Source: Saccoglossus kowalevskii
Lineage: Eukaryota; Hemichordata; Enteropneusta; Harrimaniidae
Length of the DNA stretch: 28,175 nt
Assembly: GCF_000003605.2 (NCBI RefSeq)
Contig: NW_003122433.1
Coordinates: forward strand, 58,467 to 86,641
Direction of reading: 5' to 3'
In this document: positions 4,304 to 28,069 of the stretch, one piece after another
Numbering within the stretch: position 1 is the stretch's first letter
Layout of the letters: each line of letters opens with the position of its first letter
Notes under the pieces: generated by a model
What the model saw: only the letters and a program-made list of their open reading frames with translations
What the model was told of the DNA's origin: nothing
Databases searched by the model: none
Made by a program: the position numbers and the translations under genes

Positions 4304-4518
4304 TACTGTAAAATACTTTATTTTAACTTGGAACTGATTTTCGCTATTTTCGCTGGAGGAATGATTCAGTGAAAATAAAATCCAGCGAATTTACTTTTTT
4401 TCCTCTATTTTACATTCAACTAATCCAAAATCACTGAAAATAAAATCCACACAAAACACCCAAAAAGTCTTTTCAGCGAAAATTAATTACAGCTTTAAAA
4501 TTAAAGTATTTCACAGTA
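4304..4518. mobile_element. TA-flanked MITE, mariner-like ends
   Basis: The left end reads TACTGTAAAATACTTTATTT and the right end is its near-perfect reverse complement (AAATTAAAGTATTTCACAGTA), so the terminal inverted repeats are about 23 bp around a 215-bp element. If the outer TA is the duplicated target, the element begins CTGTAAAATAC, consistent with a Tc1/mariner-type non-autonomous element. The interior holds repeated 'tttcgctgg' and 'gaaaataaaatccagcga' stretches in both orientations and no coding capacity. Confidence 0.85.
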
Positions 4519-4560
4519 CAGTATGTTATATCATACATACCTGCATACAATTTTTTTTTT

Positions 4561-4939
4561 GTTCATGAGGCCAGACTTTTTTTATTCCTTGTTTCTCGAG
4601 TTTTTAGAAGGCAATTTTTTTGAGGAGGGTAGAAGAAAAATAAAATTAATTCTTTTTTTCCATTAGATTTGTGTGATTCTCAAAGAATTGTAAATAAGAT
4701 AATTGATCGGAGAGAAGAGAAAAAAGGAAATAAAACTTTATTCCATGTATAACCTTGTTTCTCATCTGTGCGGTAAAAAAATAAAGATAAAAATATTATT
4801 TTTTTAGCATTCTTTGGCGCTTACAAGTCGCCGGGCGCGAGAAATTACGCTGAAATAAAATTATATTTTTATTTCATTTTCGGCTCCTGTTCATTAGGCG
4901 GGTTCGAGAAACAAGGGATAATAAAAGTCTGGCCTGAAC
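4561..4939. mobile_element. 380-bp terminal-inverted-repeat element
   Basis: The left end gttcatgaggccagactttt, continuing into tattccttgtttctcga, is mirrored at the right by tcgagaaacaagggataata followed by aaagtctggcctgaac. This gives inverted repeats of about 38 bp. The interior is AT-rich and carries another 'ccttgtttctca' near 4752. There is no clear target-site duplication and no open frame. The superfamily is not assigned. Confidence 0.8.
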
Positions 4940-7395: not shown

Positions 7396-7755
7396 ATGGT
7401 GTGGATCACGGTGTGGAGGGACTGTGTGGATCACGGTGTGGAGGGACTGTGTGGATCACGGTGTGGAGGGACTGTGTGAATCACAGTGTGGAGGGACTGT
7501 GTGGATCACGGTGTGGAGGGACTGTGTGGATCACGGTGTGGAGGGACTGTGGATCACGGTGTGGAGGGACTGTGTGAATCACAGTGTGGAGGGACTGTGT
7601 GGATCACGGTGTGGAGGGACGGTGTGGAGGGACGGTGTGGAGGGACTGTGTGGATCACGGTGTGGAGGGACTGTGTGGATCACGGTGTGGAGGGACTGTG
7701 TGGATCACGGTGTGGAGGGACTGTGTGGATCACGGTGTGGAGGGACTGTGTGGAT
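7396..7755. repeat. 25-bp minisatellite, about 14 units
   Basis: The unit is ggatcacggtgtggagggac plus tgtgt (25 bp), repeated head to tail with a few variants (gaatcacagtg near 7478 and 7576) and shortened 15-bp units around 7617-7645. Because 25 is not a multiple of three and no frame of the unit has a stop on the plus strand, a long open frame (7349-7780) crosses the array and would encode a 25-residue periodic peptide. That frame is best read as a by-product of the repeat: there is no domain, signal peptide or splice context. Confidence 0.95.
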
Positions 7756-15644: not shown

Positions 15645-18447
15645 CTATTGAATGTACACTTTGCGTGCTGGACATGTGCCTGTCGTATCGCCGCTCAGGT
15701 CAATATAAAACGCCTCGGTGTCGATCTCACCGGTCCGCAGAGCTTCTTTCATAGCGATGTAGTTAAAACACAATGGTATCGGATGTGGTATTTTTAGTAT
15801 TACCCTCAGCATTCCGCCTGTTTTTATTCCCCGTATACAATATGACATTTTACTGACTAGATATGCTTTCATCCTGGTGAGCTCTTCTGGGTACATCGCC
15901 AACTCGTCTCGTTGTCTCATCTGAAAGAGGAACATAAGTTTGTTTTCACTGAGTACATGAAAATATGTTATCACACAGTATTATCAAAGATAGAATATCA
16001 GAATTTAAATCTCAGTCAATATAACCGAGTGTCAAAATAGTGAAATTAATCCTTTTACATTTGGATTATGAATAGTGTTCTTCCCACAATGCTGCTAATG
16101 TTGGCTCCGGATTCGGATTTAAATTTATTATGGGGTCGGGCTCGAGTCATTGAAAATATTTACCTCAATTTCGGATTTCATAAACAATAAAAATCACGCC
16201 TTTGTAGTGTTAACCGTATTGATGCTAAATATCGAGCATGATTTATTGTTTTAGAAACATTATGTTTGTCTCGAAGAAAATTTGCCACAACATTTTATTG
16301 ATTGTCATTTTTTTTTTACTATTTGACTTACACGTGTCAAATTTCGTTCAGGATAAGTTTAAAAGATCACAAAAATAAAAAAAAAAGCAAAAACATCATA
16401 TCTGGTAATGTAGTTCCACTGTCATTTACTCGAACCCGAACCTGAAAATTAACCCAAATCTGATTTCGAATCCGACGCCAAATTCAGCATCCGTGATCAT
16501 CAAGTTTATTTTTACACCGAACAAAACCGCCTTCGTTTGACGAAATAATTAACCACAGAAATACACATGCGCATTGAAATAATAACGCGTACATCTGGTA
16601 ACGAGTTAATATGAATCCAGTTCAATACTGTGATAACTGACAGAACCGCAACAAATGGATGATTGATACGGGAATATATGATGCGGGCCTTTGCGTGGTG
16701 ACAATAAATAATATATAATTAGAGGCACTTCTGATTTAATAAACAATATGCTCAAGTGAGGTCAGAGTTCTCGTGATGACAATGATTAGGTAATTCTTGA
16801 AAAATGTGTACATAAAATCAGACTTTCCGTATTTTGTATTCACTCTTCGGGTCATCGTGGGCATGCACTTACATTTTTTTGTGCAAAATTCAAAAAAAAA
16901 AATCGATTTCAAAAATAAAAAAAATGACCAGAAACCATTTCCGTTGGTCTTGGCCTTACATATAAACACGGATATTCACATTAATATGACAACAAAAATG
17001 GTTACCATCATATGGACCGGATAGTGCGTGTCGATGTCACCGGGGATCGGAGGGCACACATGACGCCATTTCATCTCAGGACTGTCGTTTACAGAACATT
17101 CCGTGATGACTGTCTGATTTGGGTTATGCGCCCTCATATCTACAAGAACAGGAAGTCACGTATCAAGGTGTATCTTACCAAACGGGGAAGAGGGTGAGGA
17201 AAGGAATAGCAAACACACGATGCTGAAGCTGGCCCTGGATTCGGGTTCATAATCTAATTAATTTTTGGTTTGGGTTCGAGTCAGTCTGATTTGACTTATT
17301 AGTTCAATGTTTTTTTTCACAAACCTTTCTAAGACAACACAATTCACGCTAATGTAGTACCATCTTTAATTTATTGACTACTAAATACTGCATATTTGCC
17401 ATTTCAAAGGATACAAAACATATTTGTGTTTCCTAAAACAGTGGCGGCGGCACGGAGGGGGGAGGCGGTCGCCCCCTCAAAATATTTTGGGGGGCGTCGC
17501 CCCTCCAAATACAAGCTGAAACCCTTTATGTCAACAAATTTTCCTCTCAAAATGCAGCAAATAGCGTTTCAGAAGGTCTAAATTTGAATTTGTTTAAGGG
17601 GACATGCCCCCGGACCCCCCAGTAAGGTCGCCCATGAAAAATTTCGTGCCACCGCCTCTGTAAAACCGATGAATACAGACAGCATAAGCATATAAATATT
17701 CAAAATCCCAGAACCCCAAAAGGAACACGAATCTGAATCCGCGACCAACTGTACCAGTAGTCTGCCCTGCACATATACACCAGAATAATAATATCCACAG
17801 AATTTTGAGAAATATTACAATGGTCCAGATTGACAACTATCTTTCTCAATACTACATTAGCGACGTTTTGACAGCCATACAAGTTTAAGATCAAATTCAC
17901 CCTAAATAGTACTCTGGTGTCACAAACCTCAAACAACTAATACATGTATTATAGGTGTCTGAGCACAAACGTGTGAATCATAGCGAATTAGCCGTTCCAG
18001 TACTACCCGACAGTACTCTTAGAACTTGTATTATTCATACACAGCAATGCGAGGAATCAACTTTTGGTAAAAATCGCGGTCTAGGAAAACTTCTTCAAAC
18101 CATTTCAAACAATTATTCAACTTGAAAAAAGCACCCCTTGAAAGAACAAATCCACGAAAAAGGTCGGCCCCTTATTACATACACTGGTTCGAAATATGGT
18201 CCTATCAGTGTCATATGTCACATATTATATCAATACAGCAAAAATAAAACCGTTTGATTCCTTAAAATGGGACCCCTTGCCCCGTTGAAATACCCGTTTA
18301 GATATTATATCTGTACTTACCGCCCGGGTCTCCCATGATGTAGCCATCAACTGCCGCACCAATCACCAACAGCGTCACCAGTGTTGAAAACAAATTTCCA
18401 ACAACACACAGACATGTATTCGACATGAATGACGTCATATTCACCAT
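15645..18447 (-). CDS. three-exon gene for a small secreted cysteine-containing protein, family not recognised
   Basis: Coding exons are 18447-18321, 17139-17006 and 15920-15645. Junctions are GGGCG/gtaagt, ttcttgtag/ATATG, GATG/gtaacc and ctctttcag/ATG. Phases match (1 then 0), giving one 178-residue frame; each exon is open only in this frame over its length. The start AAAATGG fits Kozak well, and a pyrimidine-rich tttag just 5' suggests an additional non-coding first exon. Residues 12-35 form a hydrophobic signal peptide with likely cleavage near AAVDG. The mature part, about 140 residues, has cysteines at 57, 71, 115, 138 and 170, a central CPPIPGD segment, and an N-glycosylation site at N50 (NQT). 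No membrane segment follows. The middle exon's donor (gtaacc) is weaker than consensus. The size and odd cysteine count suggest a secreted ligand, possibly a disulfide-linked dimer, but I match it to no known cytokine or growth factor. Confidence 0.6.
16094..16488. mobile_element. inverted-repeat element inside the second intron
   Basis: The left end (gttggctccggattcggatt ... gggtcgggctcgagtca) and the right end (inverse gctgaatttggcgtcggatt ... ggttcgggttcgagtaa) pair as imperfect inverted repeats of about 65 bp around a 395-bp non-coding element. A partial relative starts at 17221. Confidence 0.7.
17221..17400. mobile_element. partial second copy of the 16094-16488 element family
   Basis: gatgctgaagctggccctgg, then attcgggttc ... 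ggtttgggttcgagtcag, matches the inverted right end of the 16094-16488 element (gatgctgaatttggcgtcgg, attcg ... gttcgggttcgagt). The inner part shares 'cacg...tgtagt' blocks. No matching opposite end was found, so it looks truncated. Confidence 0.55.
17439..17660. mobile_element. CAGTGGCGG-ended MITE (hAT-like ends), copy 1
   Basis: The ends are CAGTGGCGGCGGCACG and its inverse CGTGCCACCGCCTCTG. The 222-bp element is flanked on both sides by taaaa. CAGTGGCG-type termini are common among hAT elements, although those usually duplicate 8 bp, so the superfamily is tentative. It lies in the first intron of the secreted-protein gene. The interior is GC-rich (ggggggcgtcgcccctcc) and shares 'ccctcaaaatgcagcaaata' with the copy at 23866. 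Confidence 0.8.
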
Positions 18448-21371: not shown

Positions 21372-21540
21372 CAATCTCCATATTTAACACAACGTGTATG
21401 GCCTAGGCTATTTTCATTTTCAGTGTATGATCAATATACGTGTCACAATCATGATAATCTCTATATTTAACACAACGTGTATGGCCTAGGCTATTTTCAT
21501 TTTCAGTGTATGATCAATATACGTGTCACAATCATGATAA
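21372..21540. repeat. 83-bp tandem duplication, two copies
   Basis: The segment beginning atatttaacacaacgtgtat is repeated with an exact 83-base offset (21381 against 21464). The two copies look identical apart from one base near the start, so the duplication is recent. Confidence 0.95.
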
Positions 21541-21985: not shown

Positions 21986-23635
21986 TTAAACGTTCGCCTG
22001 GTGGTCATATAATGTTTGATAAATCGCTTCCTCGTCTTTAACCAGTGCGGTATAGCGCCGCTCGCGTTCTGGGACCTCATAGGCGTAATCATAACCGGGA
22101 TTGCACGTGCCAGCCGGAGCAGAGTTCCGGGTGGTTGGTGGGATAGTTGGGTTATCATCCGGTATTATTTCAAAATATTCAGGGATAACTTTTATTGCGG
22201 GGTTATCGGTGTTGTTTTGGCGGATGTTTTCTGTTTTTTCTGTCTGTAATGGGAATGTGACGAGCTGGTTAGCATGTGCAGTGCTCGCCGGTGACACGTC
22301 GCGCTGCGACTCTGGGTTACCTTGCCTGTTTGCTATTGGTGAAGTCGATGGCGAAGACCTCACTGTGCTCGGCACGCCAAGGTTATTAAACACTTCACAG
22401 TTGAAGTTTTGTTTCTTTTTATTCTGTCGGGAAAACCAAACGTAAAACAGTAAAGCACACAGTAGAAGCGTACCGAAAAAGGTACCGAAGAATGTTCCCA
22501 AGATTTGTCCCGTTGCATCGCACTGGCTCACTGGGGCAATTGGACTTCCTTCCGGCGTTGTCTCGGGTGTGCTTGAAATTCGTCCAATGACTGTGAGGGC
22601 GATGGCGACGCTAGTATCGCCCTCTATGTTCGCCGCTCTGCAAGTATATTTCCCATCATCGGTGTAATCAACATCGCTTATCACTAGAATTCCATTCTCG
22701 TACGTTGTGAATTTTTCACCCTTGTCGTGGTTGGGTGGTATGTACCGCCCTCGTGGCGTGGACCACGTGATAATAGGTTCTGGCTGACCAGAAGCGTTGC
22801 AAAATAATTCCACCATCGTACCCGCCATGGCGATGACGTCATCGCTGTAGTAGTCTATTCTCGGACTTATGCAAATAAGATCATCTTCGCTCAGCTGGGT
22901 GAGCTTTCGACCACTTAAACTGGGCGGAGAGTAACATATCGCCCCAGACAGAAAATTACCAGGACGACCACTCCAAGCAAGTAAATCTATCAATCTGCAG
23001 TCGCATTGTAGCGGATTGTCGTCAAGATACAGTTGCGACAGCCGTGGCAGAGAATCGAGAACACTTCCACTGAACGTCTCTACCTGGTTTGTTTCCAGCT
23101 TCACGACCATAAGCTCCGATAGATCATCCAAATACAGACGTTCCAGACCCGCTAAATGATTGTTGGACAACGACAATGTTTGTAGTCCCGATAGTCCAGC
23201 CAACGACGTATTAGCCAGTGAGCTAAGTTTGTTACTTGACAAGTCGAGATAGAAAAGTTGGGACAAACACGAGAACACGTCCCCGGGTAACATTTCTATT
23301 TCGTTCATTTGTAAATATAGCATTCTTAATAGTTCAACTCCGTTAAATGCCTGGAGTTGTATTTCTGAAATAAAATTATCGCTCGCATCTAAGGTATTCA
23401 GTAAAGGAAAATGTGAGAGTTCGTTCGCGTGAAGCGTGGAGATGAGATTACCAGCCACGTTGACATCGACGACGTCCGTATGTATAGGTATTCTGGTGAA
23501 GCCACTGTATCCACAGTTTTCGTGCGTGCCTTGGGGAATGGTTGTCGTGCAGTTGTAGAGGCATGCTGTAACCGCAGTCTGTAATGTAAGCGACGCATAT
23601 ACATGTATGAAGAAAATACCACGTAATGACGTCAT
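21986..23635 (-). CDS. LRR-Ig transmembrane receptor with a C-terminal ITAM
   Basis: 549 residues in one coding exon. The start is the Met at 23635: the exon opens at 23650 after a strong acceptor (ttttttctctacag), A is at -3, and a signal peptide follows at once (about residues 1-24). The open frame continues 69 codons further 5', but that part is intron. Residues 25-41 hold a degenerate N-terminal cap (C25, C29, C41). Leucine-rich repeats of exactly 24 residues start at 78, 102, 126, 150, 174 and 198. A C-terminal cap spans 207-255 (C211, C213, C234, C255). An I-set Ig domain spans 257-349 (C279, W291, DDGKYTC with C332). The membrane segment is 378-401, followed by a basic stop-transfer (RQNKKK) and a 148-residue tail. 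The tail holds Y519 (YEVP, a YxxP site) and YTALVKDEEAIYQTL at 528-542, matching the ITAM rule YxxL-x7-YxxL. N28, N142 and N280 are glycosylation sites. This is a cell-surface recognition receptor that should signal through Src- and Syk-type kinases; the ligand is unknown. Confidence 0.94.
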   Translation of the reverse strand: MTSLRGIFFIHVYASLTLQTAVTACLYNCTTTIPQGTHENCGYSGFTRIPIHTDVVDVNVAGNLISTLHANELSHFPLLNTLDASDNFISEIQLQAFNGVELLRMLYLQMNEIEMLPGDVFSCLSQLFYLDLSSNKLSSLANTSLAGLSGLQTLSLSNNHLAGLERLYLDDLSELMVVKLETNQVETFSGSVLDSLPRLSQLYLDDNPLQCDCRLIDLLAWSGRPGNFLSGAICYSPPSLSGRKLTQLSEDDLICISPRIDYYSDDVIAMAGTMVELFCNASGQPEPIITWSTPRGRYIPPNHDKGEKFTTYENGILVISDVDYTDDGKYTCRAANIEGDTSVAIALTVIGRISSTPETTPEGSPIAPVSQCDATGQILGTFFGTFFGTLLLCALLFYVWFSRQNKKKQNFNCEVFNNLGVPSTVRSSPSTSPIANRQGNPESQRDVSPASTAHANQLVTFPLQTEKTENIRQNNTDNPAIKVIPEYFEIIPDDNPTIPPTTRNSAPAGTCNPGYDYAYEVPERERRYTALVKDEEAIYQTLYDHQANV

Positions 23636-23865
23636 TATGTTTAATGCAATCTGTAGAGAAAAAAAATAATACAATTTAAACTTGTTGATTGAGTTAAAGT
23701 TTGTCAAATCGTTTAAAGTGTTTCTGGCCTGGAGAACGCTATTTGCCACCCCCCCCCCCAAATTATTGCCAAAGATAATGCATAAAACGTCTGCACTATG
23801 CAATAACACATGATACATGGACACGCGATGTGAAGCGACCATCGGAATTTAAGCATATAAGTAAT

Positions 23866-26888: not shown

Positions 26889-28013
26889 CTATTCCGGCAT
26901 GTCATACACTTCATCGTCTGTAACGCCCAGGACCATGTATTGTTCATCGCTTACAGCGCCCATGTATTGGGAGTCTCTTTCTCCGGACTCCATTTCTGTA
27001 TATTCCTCCTCATCCTGACCTAGGTCCATCCCCGTGTACTCAGTGTCGGTACTGACTGGCACTTCATACACCTCGTCTTGTGTTGTCCCTACTGCAGTCG
27101 ATATTATCGGTGCGTCGTGGTTGAATGACTTCGTCGTGCCTGCTTTATCTTTCTCAGACTGTTGAACATCTAGGTTGTCCTGACCTAGAGATTGTCTCCA
27201 TTCTTCCAGCGATGATGTTGGTTCGTTTGGTTCCACGTACACTTCGTCATCTGTGGCACCCTCAACCGCGTCTTCTTTGCAATTCGTCGATGGATGTGTT
27301 TTTTGTTGAAATTCAACGTTTTCGTAGGCTTCACTGGGTCCGTTTGACTCATTAAATCCGCTACTGGGAATCCTTTCCTTTTTCGTATTTCCATCGGCCA
27401 CATCCACTTTAGATTTTTCTTTCTCAACCTTTCTCTTTGACTTTGGTTTAAACAACTTTGGTCCACGTTTATTCCAACCTCCTCCGGACTTGTCGTTTGT
27501 GTTCTTATTATTGTTTTGTCCGACACCTACAACCACATCGTCTTGGGTTTGCGACTTTCTCCAGTCTTCAACTGACAACTCAGATTCATTCGGGTTAACG
27601 TACTCGAGTTCTTGTTCTGTGGTGACTTGACCATGATCGCGATCAGGTTTGCGATTTGGCTGTTCAACTTGAAATTCCACGTTCTCATAGGCCCCATTGT
27701 CATCAGCAACGGTCACCGTACTCCCTGTCTGCGGTTTCATGACAGGCTCATCTGTATACTGGTTTTTGTTTGCAGGACGGATCCACTTCCACCAAGAATT
27801 ACCGTGCCTTCGCTGCACTGTTGGAGACTCGACATCGTCGCTCGGTCGCATTTTCTCACGCAAGTAAAAGTAATACAACAAGAAGAAAAACAGACAGGTC
27901 AACAACAGCGTCACAAAAAAGGTAACTGCGATGGCTGGACCAAAGTTGCAATTGCTGCTACAGTCACATAGATCGTCTTCAGACCAATCATAAGTAGTTA
28001 CCTCCATTACCAT
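26889..28013 (-). CDS. LAT-like transmembrane scaffold with multiple SH2-docking tyrosines
   Basis: 374 residues in one exon, starting at the Met at 28013 (a second Met at codon 3 has a better Kozak context) after an in-frame TGA. There is no signal peptide. About 25 N-terminal residues (acidic, with C16, C18, C22) precede a membrane segment at 26-50 and the basic LREKMR, so the topology is probably N-out. The rest is a low-complexity acidic tail without a folded domain. Tyrosine motifs are: YENV at 109 and 230 and YVNP at 138 (YxN, Grb2-type SH2); YVEP 259, YEVP 316 and YDMP 370 (YxxP, Crk-type), each preceded by DEV; YTGM 326 and YTEM 338 (YxxM, PI3K p85-type); YMGA 350 and YMVL 359. A lysine-rich patch spans 182-202. 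Residues 108-160 and 229-282 are a duplicated module. Layout matches vertebrate transmembrane adaptors such as LAT by analogy, not shown homology. Alternatively it is the last exon of a larger receptor. Confidence 0.85.
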   Translation of the reverse strand: MVMEVTTYDWSEDDLCDCSSNCNFGPAIAVTFFVTLLLTCLFFFLLYYFYLREKMRPSDDVESPTVQRRHGNSWWKWIRPANKNQYTDEPVMKPQTGSTVTVADDNGAYENVEFQVEQPNRKPDRDHGQVTTEQELEYVNPNESELSVEDWRKSQTQDDVVVGVGQNNNKNTNDKSGGGWNKRGPKLFKPKSKRKVEKEKSKVDVADGNTKKERIPSSGFNESNGPSEAYENVEFQQKTHPSTNCKEDAVEGATDDEVYVEPNEPTSSLEEWRQSLGQDNLDVQQSEKDKAGTTKSFNHDAPIISTAVGTTQDEVYEVPVSTDTEYTGMDLGQDEEEYTEMESGERDSQYMGAVSDEQYMVLGVTDDEVYDMPE

Positions 28014-28069
28014 TTGCGTGTGAGGTGTTCTTCGGTGTCATCCGCTCACCGTGAGATGGAGTGGTGGAA
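28014..28069 (-). other. 5' leader part of the scaffold exon, with splice acceptor
   Basis: The exon opens at 28069 after tatcatttcag. Read in the frame of the downstream protein, it gives PPLHLTVSG and then a TGA at 28041-28039, so the coding frame cannot extend through it as sequenced. It also contains a donor-like CACG/gtgagc, which would allow alternative splicing. Upstream exons lie beyond the window. Confidence 0.55.

What the first reader, a model, noticed from the sequence alone, without database searches (positions are those of the whole stretch)
21986..22090. ITAM in the tail of an invertebrate LRR-Ig receptor
The last 22 residues hold YTALVKDEEAIYQTL, an exact YxxL-x7-YxxL immunoreceptor activation motif, inside the receptor chain itself and preceded by a YEVP site. 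In vertebrates ITAMs usually sit on separate adaptor chains or on a few receptors. An LRR-Ig ectodomain joined directly to an ITAM would be a self-contained pattern-recognition receptor feeding into Syk-type kinases.
Basis: partly seen in the sequence, partly recalled or inferred. Interest (0 to 1): 0.78.

Follow-up and report, generated by a model that had tools for sequence, protein, structure and literature searches.

The report
ITAM-tailed LRR-Ig receptor, invertebrate genome
A gene of an apparently invertebrate animal joins a leucine-rich-repeat and immunoglobulin ectodomain to a tail carrying a textbook immune activation motif, and a second receptor in the same genome has the same motif and spacing, so this looks like a single-chain activating receptor, though its function is untested.

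Summary
Window 21986-23635 (minus) encodes, in one exon, an LRR-Ig-TM protein whose 148-residue tail contains YTALVKDEEAIYQTL, an exact YxxL-x7-YxxL. Shuffling gives the exact form in 0.00022 of tails, the looser x6-8 form in 0.0055. As a bare pattern it is cheap: the x6-12 form occurs 12 times in the window's six frames, 11 in short frames. The best support is a distant single-exon LRR-Ig receptor, L006 (33% identity), with YADLSNVDSNIYQQL, same spacing. Of 14 TM-bearing LRR tails examined, 2 have the exact form (0.007 expected); 12 do not. The genome has an SH2-ankyrin-SH2 gene of SHARK/HTK16 layout whose SH2s match SYK best, and Src-family and SHP2-like SH2s. Its kinase domain was not seen; a true Syk could not be searched for. 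Orthologues could not be tested. Invertebrate ITAM/ITIM receptors are already in print, so this is a new variant of a known kind. Phosphorylation, ligand and response are inferred.

The parts
21986..23635 (-). Coding sequence, single coding exon, 549 codons plus stop: signal-peptide-like start, LRRNT, LRRs, LRRCT, Ig, stalk, TM, tail
   Evidence: Open frame, Pfam, hydropathy and coordinates
23651..23666 (-). Candidate 3' splice acceptor (pyrimidine run ending in CAG), 15 bases before the ATG, suggesting an untranslated exon upstream
   Evidence: Read by eye; no transcript evidence
23009..23563 (-). LRR N-terminal cap and leucine-rich repeats
   Evidence: Pfam LRR_8, 3 stretches, E 1.9e-29; coordinates; the cap is read by eye
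22868..23017 (-). LRR C-terminal cap (NPLQCDC...)
   Evidence: Read by eye; this stretch aligns with LRRC4B
22589..22864 (-). Immunoglobulin domain, I-set
   Evidence: Pfam I-set 3e-14, residues 259-350
22433..22504 (-). Transmembrane helix, no charged residue
   Evidence: Hydropathy maximum 2.08; the only confident region of the single-sequence model
21989..22432 (-). Cytoplasmic tail, 148 residues, 7 tyrosines
22166..22177 (-). YFEI, a further YxxI site in the tail
22070..22081 (-). YEVP site, 5 residues before the ITAM
22010..22054 (-). ITAM: YTALVKDEEAIYQTL, exact YxxL-x7-YxxL

Best explanation
A single-chain activating cell-surface receptor. The LRR-Ig ectodomain binds a microbial or self ligand; clustering lets a Src-family kinase phosphorylate Y529 and Y540 of the tail; the doubly phosphorylated ITAM recruits a tandem-SH2 kinase (SHARK-type, or a Syk not yet searched for) and starts a phagocytic or inflammatory response. 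YEVP may dock a further SH2 adaptor. Shown: the architecture, the motif, the same motif in a second receptor, and DNA encoding SHARK-like, Src-family and SHP2-like SH2 domains. Inferred: phosphorylation, binding, ligand and response.
For: Exact ITAM in the tail of a Pfam-confirmed LRR-Ig receptor. A second LRR-Ig receptor, L006, with the same YxxL-x7-YxxL (shuffle 0.00044 for its tail). 2 of 14 TM-bearing LRR tails have the exact form against 0.007 expected. Neither tyrosine of the window motif fits the strict ITIM consensus. A locus with SH2, ankyrin repeats and SH2 in this order (Pfam SH2 6.9e-21, Ank 1.7e-10, Ank_2 1.1e-12, SH2 4.8e-8); both SH2s match SYK best among solved chains (3.1e-23; 1.1e-9). 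Src-family SH2 (best Yes, Fgr, Fyn). Uncharged TM, so no sign of pairing with an adaptor chain (inference). PMC10253181 section 18: invertebrates have one Syk-like gene plus HTK16/SHARK. PMC5978004 passages: SHARK mediates ITAM-dependent signals, and the distribution of Syk implies ancient ITAM receptors.
Against: No orthologue could be examined. 12 of the 14 TM-bearing LRR tails lack an ITAM, among them the three relatives that score best (L003, L004, L005). The best solved relatives of the ectodomain are LRRC4B and LINGO-type proteins. The kinase domain of the SHARK-like gene was not seen, because the DNA beyond its second SH2 reads N; the search for Syk did not complete. The loose motif is common in chance frames. 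No expression data.
Confidence: 0.58

Rival explanations
1. A cell-adhesion or neuronal LRR-Ig protein (LRRC4-, LINGO- or kekkon-like) whose YxxL sites are endocytosis signals or isolated SH2 sites, the ITAM spacing being accidental.
For: The best solved relatives are LRRC4B (5.4e-41) and LINGO-type proteins. YTAL and YQTL also fit the YxxPhi sorting consensus (recalled). The loose motif is common in chance frames, and 12 of 14 LRR tails lack it.
Against: Exact form 0.00022 by shuffle, and the same spacing in a second, distant LRR-Ig receptor.
Confidence: 0.27
2. An inhibitory or dual receptor: the tyrosines mainly recruit SHP2- or SHIP-type phosphatases, as in the amphioxus inhibitory LRR receptor BbLcLRR.
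For: An amphioxus LRR receptor with ITIM or ITIM-like tyrosines associates with SHIP1 and damps T-cell signalling (PMC8211107 passages). That paper accepts ITIM sites such as DDYATV that lack the classical residue at -2, so by its looser rule the tyrosines here would pass too. SHP2-like tandem SH2s are in this genome. The first tyrosine of the second receptor, LHYADL, fits the strict ITIM consensus.
Against: Neither ITAM tyrosine of the window gene, nor any other in its tail, fits the strict ITIM consensus; the paired spacing is that of activating motifs.
Confidence: 0.12
3. A chance motif in an ordinary, perhaps unexpressed, LRR-Ig paralogue.
For: Twelve loose matches in six frames of the window; the last 72 residues have no other match in the genome better than E 2.49.
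Against: Location at the C-terminus of an intact long frame with domain support, and the second receptor.
Confidence: 0.03

Closest known systems
Oyster CgIgIT2 and oyster 'BCR-like' signalling (PMC11999971, section 15 and passages read; the primary papers were not read)
   Same: Single-chain invertebrate Ig-superfamily receptor said to carry an ITAM and to act in haemolymph defence
   Different: Five Ig domains, no LRR mentioned. The review calls the motif an ITAM, while the title of its reference 93 calls the receptor inhibitory, so its polarity is unsettled here
Amphioxus BbLcLRR (PMC8211107, passages read)
   Same: LRR-TM receptor whose tail tyrosines are phosphorylated by a Src-family kinase
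   Different: LRRs plus a WSC domain, no Ig domain listed; ITIM or ITIM-like sites; inhibitory; associates with SHIP1
Hydractinia and Botryllus allorecognition receptors (PMC12065747, passages read)
   Same: Invertebrate receptors reported with ITAM or ITIM motifs, in animals that have the matching signalling proteins
   Different: Ig/Sushi region in the Botryllus receptors, Ig-like domains in Hydractinia (recalled); allorecognition
Drosophila Draper with Shark (recalled; listed as reference 35 of PMC5978004)
   Same: The receptor chain bears its own ITAM and uses a SHARK kinase, the layout found in this genome
   Different: EMI/EGF ectodomain, phagocytic receptor (recalled)
Oyster CgLRRIG-1 (PMC11999971, section 15)
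   Same: Transmembrane protein, LRR-Ig by its name, on haemocytes, said to recognise a bacterium
   Different: No ITAM is mentioned in the section read
LRRC4B and LINGO
   Same: LRR-Ig ectodomain
   Different: Vertebrate neuronal proteins without an ITAM known to me (recalled)

Membership tests
ITAM-bearing receptor | YxxL/I-x6-8(12)-YxxL/I in a cytoplasmic tail | tested here: met
ITAM-bearing receptor | Same motif in other receptors of the genome | tested here: met
   1 further receptor, L006, of 13 other TM-bearing LRR tails
ITAM-bearing receptor | Motif conserved in orthologues | not testable with these tools
   The only animal genome open to search is the window's own, which 'has no relatives here'
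ITAM-bearing receptor | Both tyrosines phosphorylated by a Src-family kinase and bound by tandem SH2 | not testable with these tools
   Bench test; a Src-family SH2 is encoded
ITAM pathway | Tandem-SH2 kinase in the genome | tested here: inconclusive
   SH2-ankyrin-SH2 gene seen, SH2s SYK-like; kinase domain not seen; the Syk query did not complete
LRR-Ig receptor | LRRs with caps, Ig domain, TM | tested here: met
   LRR and Ig by Pfam; TM by hydropathy; caps by eye, the C-terminal one also in the alignment
ITIM receptor | Strict consensus [S/I/V/L]xYxx[L/I/V] | tested here: not met
   0 in the window tail; 1 (LHYADL) in the L006 tail
TLR-type receptor | TIR domain in the tail | tested here: not met
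   No TIR among the 10 Pfam families matched at E 0.1 or better

The most novel reading that the evidence does not exclude
A small family of germline, single-exon LRR-Ig receptors that carry their own ITAM is an innate sensing arm feeding SHARK/Syk kinases, supplying one of the ITAM-bearing upstream receptors that PMC5978004 infers for the ancient Syk-CARD-CC-Bcl10 pathway.
Probability: 0.25. Interest if true: 0.72.

Novelty: new variant of a known kind. Interest (0 to 1): 0.46.

Why it matters
If it works as proposed, LRR recognition is wired straight to ITAM signalling in one chain, a pairing that vertebrates mostly split between TIR-type LRR sensors and ITAM receptors (recalled). PMC5978004 infers, from co-distribution, ancient ITAM receptors upstream of Syk and the CARD-CC/Bcl10 complex in invertebrates; the passages I read name none, and a concrete candidate makes the idea testable. 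In nine searches of the held papers, judged from the listings and the passages read, I met no LRR-Ig receptor with a paired ITAM. Most subscription papers are not held and the listings were capped, so this does not show absence from print.

Tried and rejected
Structure: AlphaFold2 on the single sequence gave mean pLDDT 35.8, with only the TM region confident; not used, and no fold search was made. Tail homology: a query of the last 72 residues found itself and one weak match, E 2.49; L006 did not come up. ITIM (strict) and TIR readings: not met. Tandem LRR neighbours of L006: no frame of 110 or more residues looks LRR-like by eye in a 7 kb stretch on each side. The neighbouring frame P0002: no Pfam match at 0.1, no NCBIfam match at 0.01, best PDB match E 0.16. 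NCBIfam matches of the two receptors are generic LRR matches far below the cut-offs. A 111-residue frame at 15645-15980: no Pfam match. Amphioxus FrLRR: an LRR receptor without cytoplasmic tail, not comparable (PMC10199209 passages). Organism: not identified.

Not answered: the genome search reported a busy machine in 32 calls. The SH2 family request (15) was answered on repeat (20). Lost: the Syk N-SH2 query, the L006 paralogue query, COX1. So 'no Syk seen' is no evidence of absence, and the number of ITAM-bearing LRR receptors is a lower bound.

Full report
What was checked. The window is the end of contig C1510 of a 572 Mb genome in 4830 contigs. On the minus strand an open frame of 620 codons ends at 21986. 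Its likely start is the Met at 23635, 15 bases after a pyrimidine run ending in CAG, so the whole coding part probably lies in one exon behind an untranslated one (by eye). The protein has a signal-peptide-like start, LRRs (LRR_8 1.9e-29), one I-set Ig domain (3e-14), a TM without charged residues, and a 148-residue tail. Residue numbers are those of P0001, whose residue 2 is the Met.

The motif. YTALVKDEEAIYQTL lies at 22010-22054, followed by YDHQANV and the stop. Both halves are YxxL and the spacer is 7. Shuffling the tail 200,000 times gives the exact form in 0.00022, x6-8 with L/I in 0.0055 and x6-12 in 0.0123. As a caution, the x6-12 pattern occurs 12 times in all six frames of the window, 11 of these in frames of 27 to 59 residues: as a bare pattern it is common.

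Relatives in the genome. The protein query gave 39 matches at E 1e-5 or better from 79 scored of 216 candidates; 30 were fetched, the window's own among them. No close copy came up: the next four rows have 26-33% identity. From the 30 loci I kept 16 distinct LRR frames that end in a stop, have at least 300 residues and at least two L..L.L..N repeats, and hold no N run; frames cut by a locus end, shorter ones and ones with N were dropped. 2 of the 16 (L010, L022) had no hydrophobic stretch above my TM limit and were dropped too, which left 14. Of these, 2 have the exact YxxL-x7-YxxL in the tail, the window gene and L006 (C4127), against 0.007 expected from shuffling each tail, or 0.17 for the x6-12 form; 12 have none. 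L006 is a single-exon LRR-Ig-TM protein (LRR_8 1e-54, Ig_3 1.7e-8) with YADLSNVDSNIYQQL, a YVN site and YHSV. The three relatives that score best, L003 to L005, have no ITAM. The query with the last 72 residues did not bring up L006 at all, so either the motif is old and the rest of the tail drifted, or it arose twice; I cannot tell which.

The signalling partners. The SH2 family search gave 27 matches. One locus on C2592 holds in order an SH2, two ankyrin-repeat stretches and a second SH2 (Pfam SH2 6.9e-21, Ank 1.7e-10, Ank_2 1.1e-12, SH2 4.8e-8). Both SH2s match SYK best among solved chains (3.1e-23; 1.1e-9, the latter query joined from two exon pieces). That layout is HTK16/SHARK, which PMC10253181 section 18 calls unique to invertebrates; this also suggests that the genome is an invertebrate's. 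The DNA after the second SH2 reads N, so the kinase domain was not seen. Further SH2s match SHP2 (1.9e-87), the Src family (Yes, 1.9e-25) and PI3K p85 (1.4e-16). A true Syk was not tested: after genome search gave no further answer.

How it most likely works. Ligand-driven clustering, Src-family phosphorylation of both YxxL, recruitment of a tandem-SH2 kinase, activation. The anatomy fits; every biochemical step is inferred. The strict ITIM consensus is not met in this tail, but the amphioxus work accepts looser ITIM sites, so an inhibitory role is not excluded. The best solved relatives of the ectodomain are LRRC4B and LINGO-type proteins, so a role in adhesion is the main rival.

What is known. 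The held literature already reports invertebrate ITAM or ITIM receptors: oyster CgIgIT2 (PMC11999971 section 15; the title of its reference 93 says inhibitory), Botryllus and Hydractinia (PMC12065747 passages), Dscam with a single YxxL called an ITAM (PMC6851185 passages), and an inhibitory amphioxus LRR receptor (PMC8211107 passages). PMC5978004 (passages) infers ancient ITAM receptors upstream of Syk and the CBM complex. The iScience paper on oyster BCR-like signalling is not held. Against that background, the joining of an LRR-Ig ectodomain to an activating-type ITAM is a new combination as far as I could see, not a new kind.

Verdict. Observation confirmed. Interpretation plausible and partly supported. 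Conservation and function remain open.

Noticed in passing
26889-28037 (-): The C-terminal part of a second apparent transmembrane protein with a tyrosine-rich tail: AYENVEFQ twice, YVNP and YVEP, VYEVP, YTGM and YTEM, VYDMP. No Pfam or NCBIfam match. The window ends where the contig ends, so the rest of its ectodomain may lie on another contig.
   Followed up: partly
4-1766: Satellite-like array of 56 copies of a 31-base unit, 90% matches.
   Followed up: no
7399-7755: Array of 14.3 copies of a 25-base unit that leaves a 146-residue repetitive frame open; probably not coding.
   Followed up: no
21373-21540: An 83-base unit repeated twice, 98% matches, downstream of the receptor gene.
   Followed up: no
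L006 (C4127), ORF L006:646-2817 +: Second LRR-Ig receptor with an ITAM of identical spacing, and an ITIM-like LHYADL that shares its first tyrosine.
   Followed up: partly
L065, + strand, about 4350-4770: A simple repeat read as YPTL units mimics ITAM patterns in two frames; a trap for motif scans.
   Followed up: no
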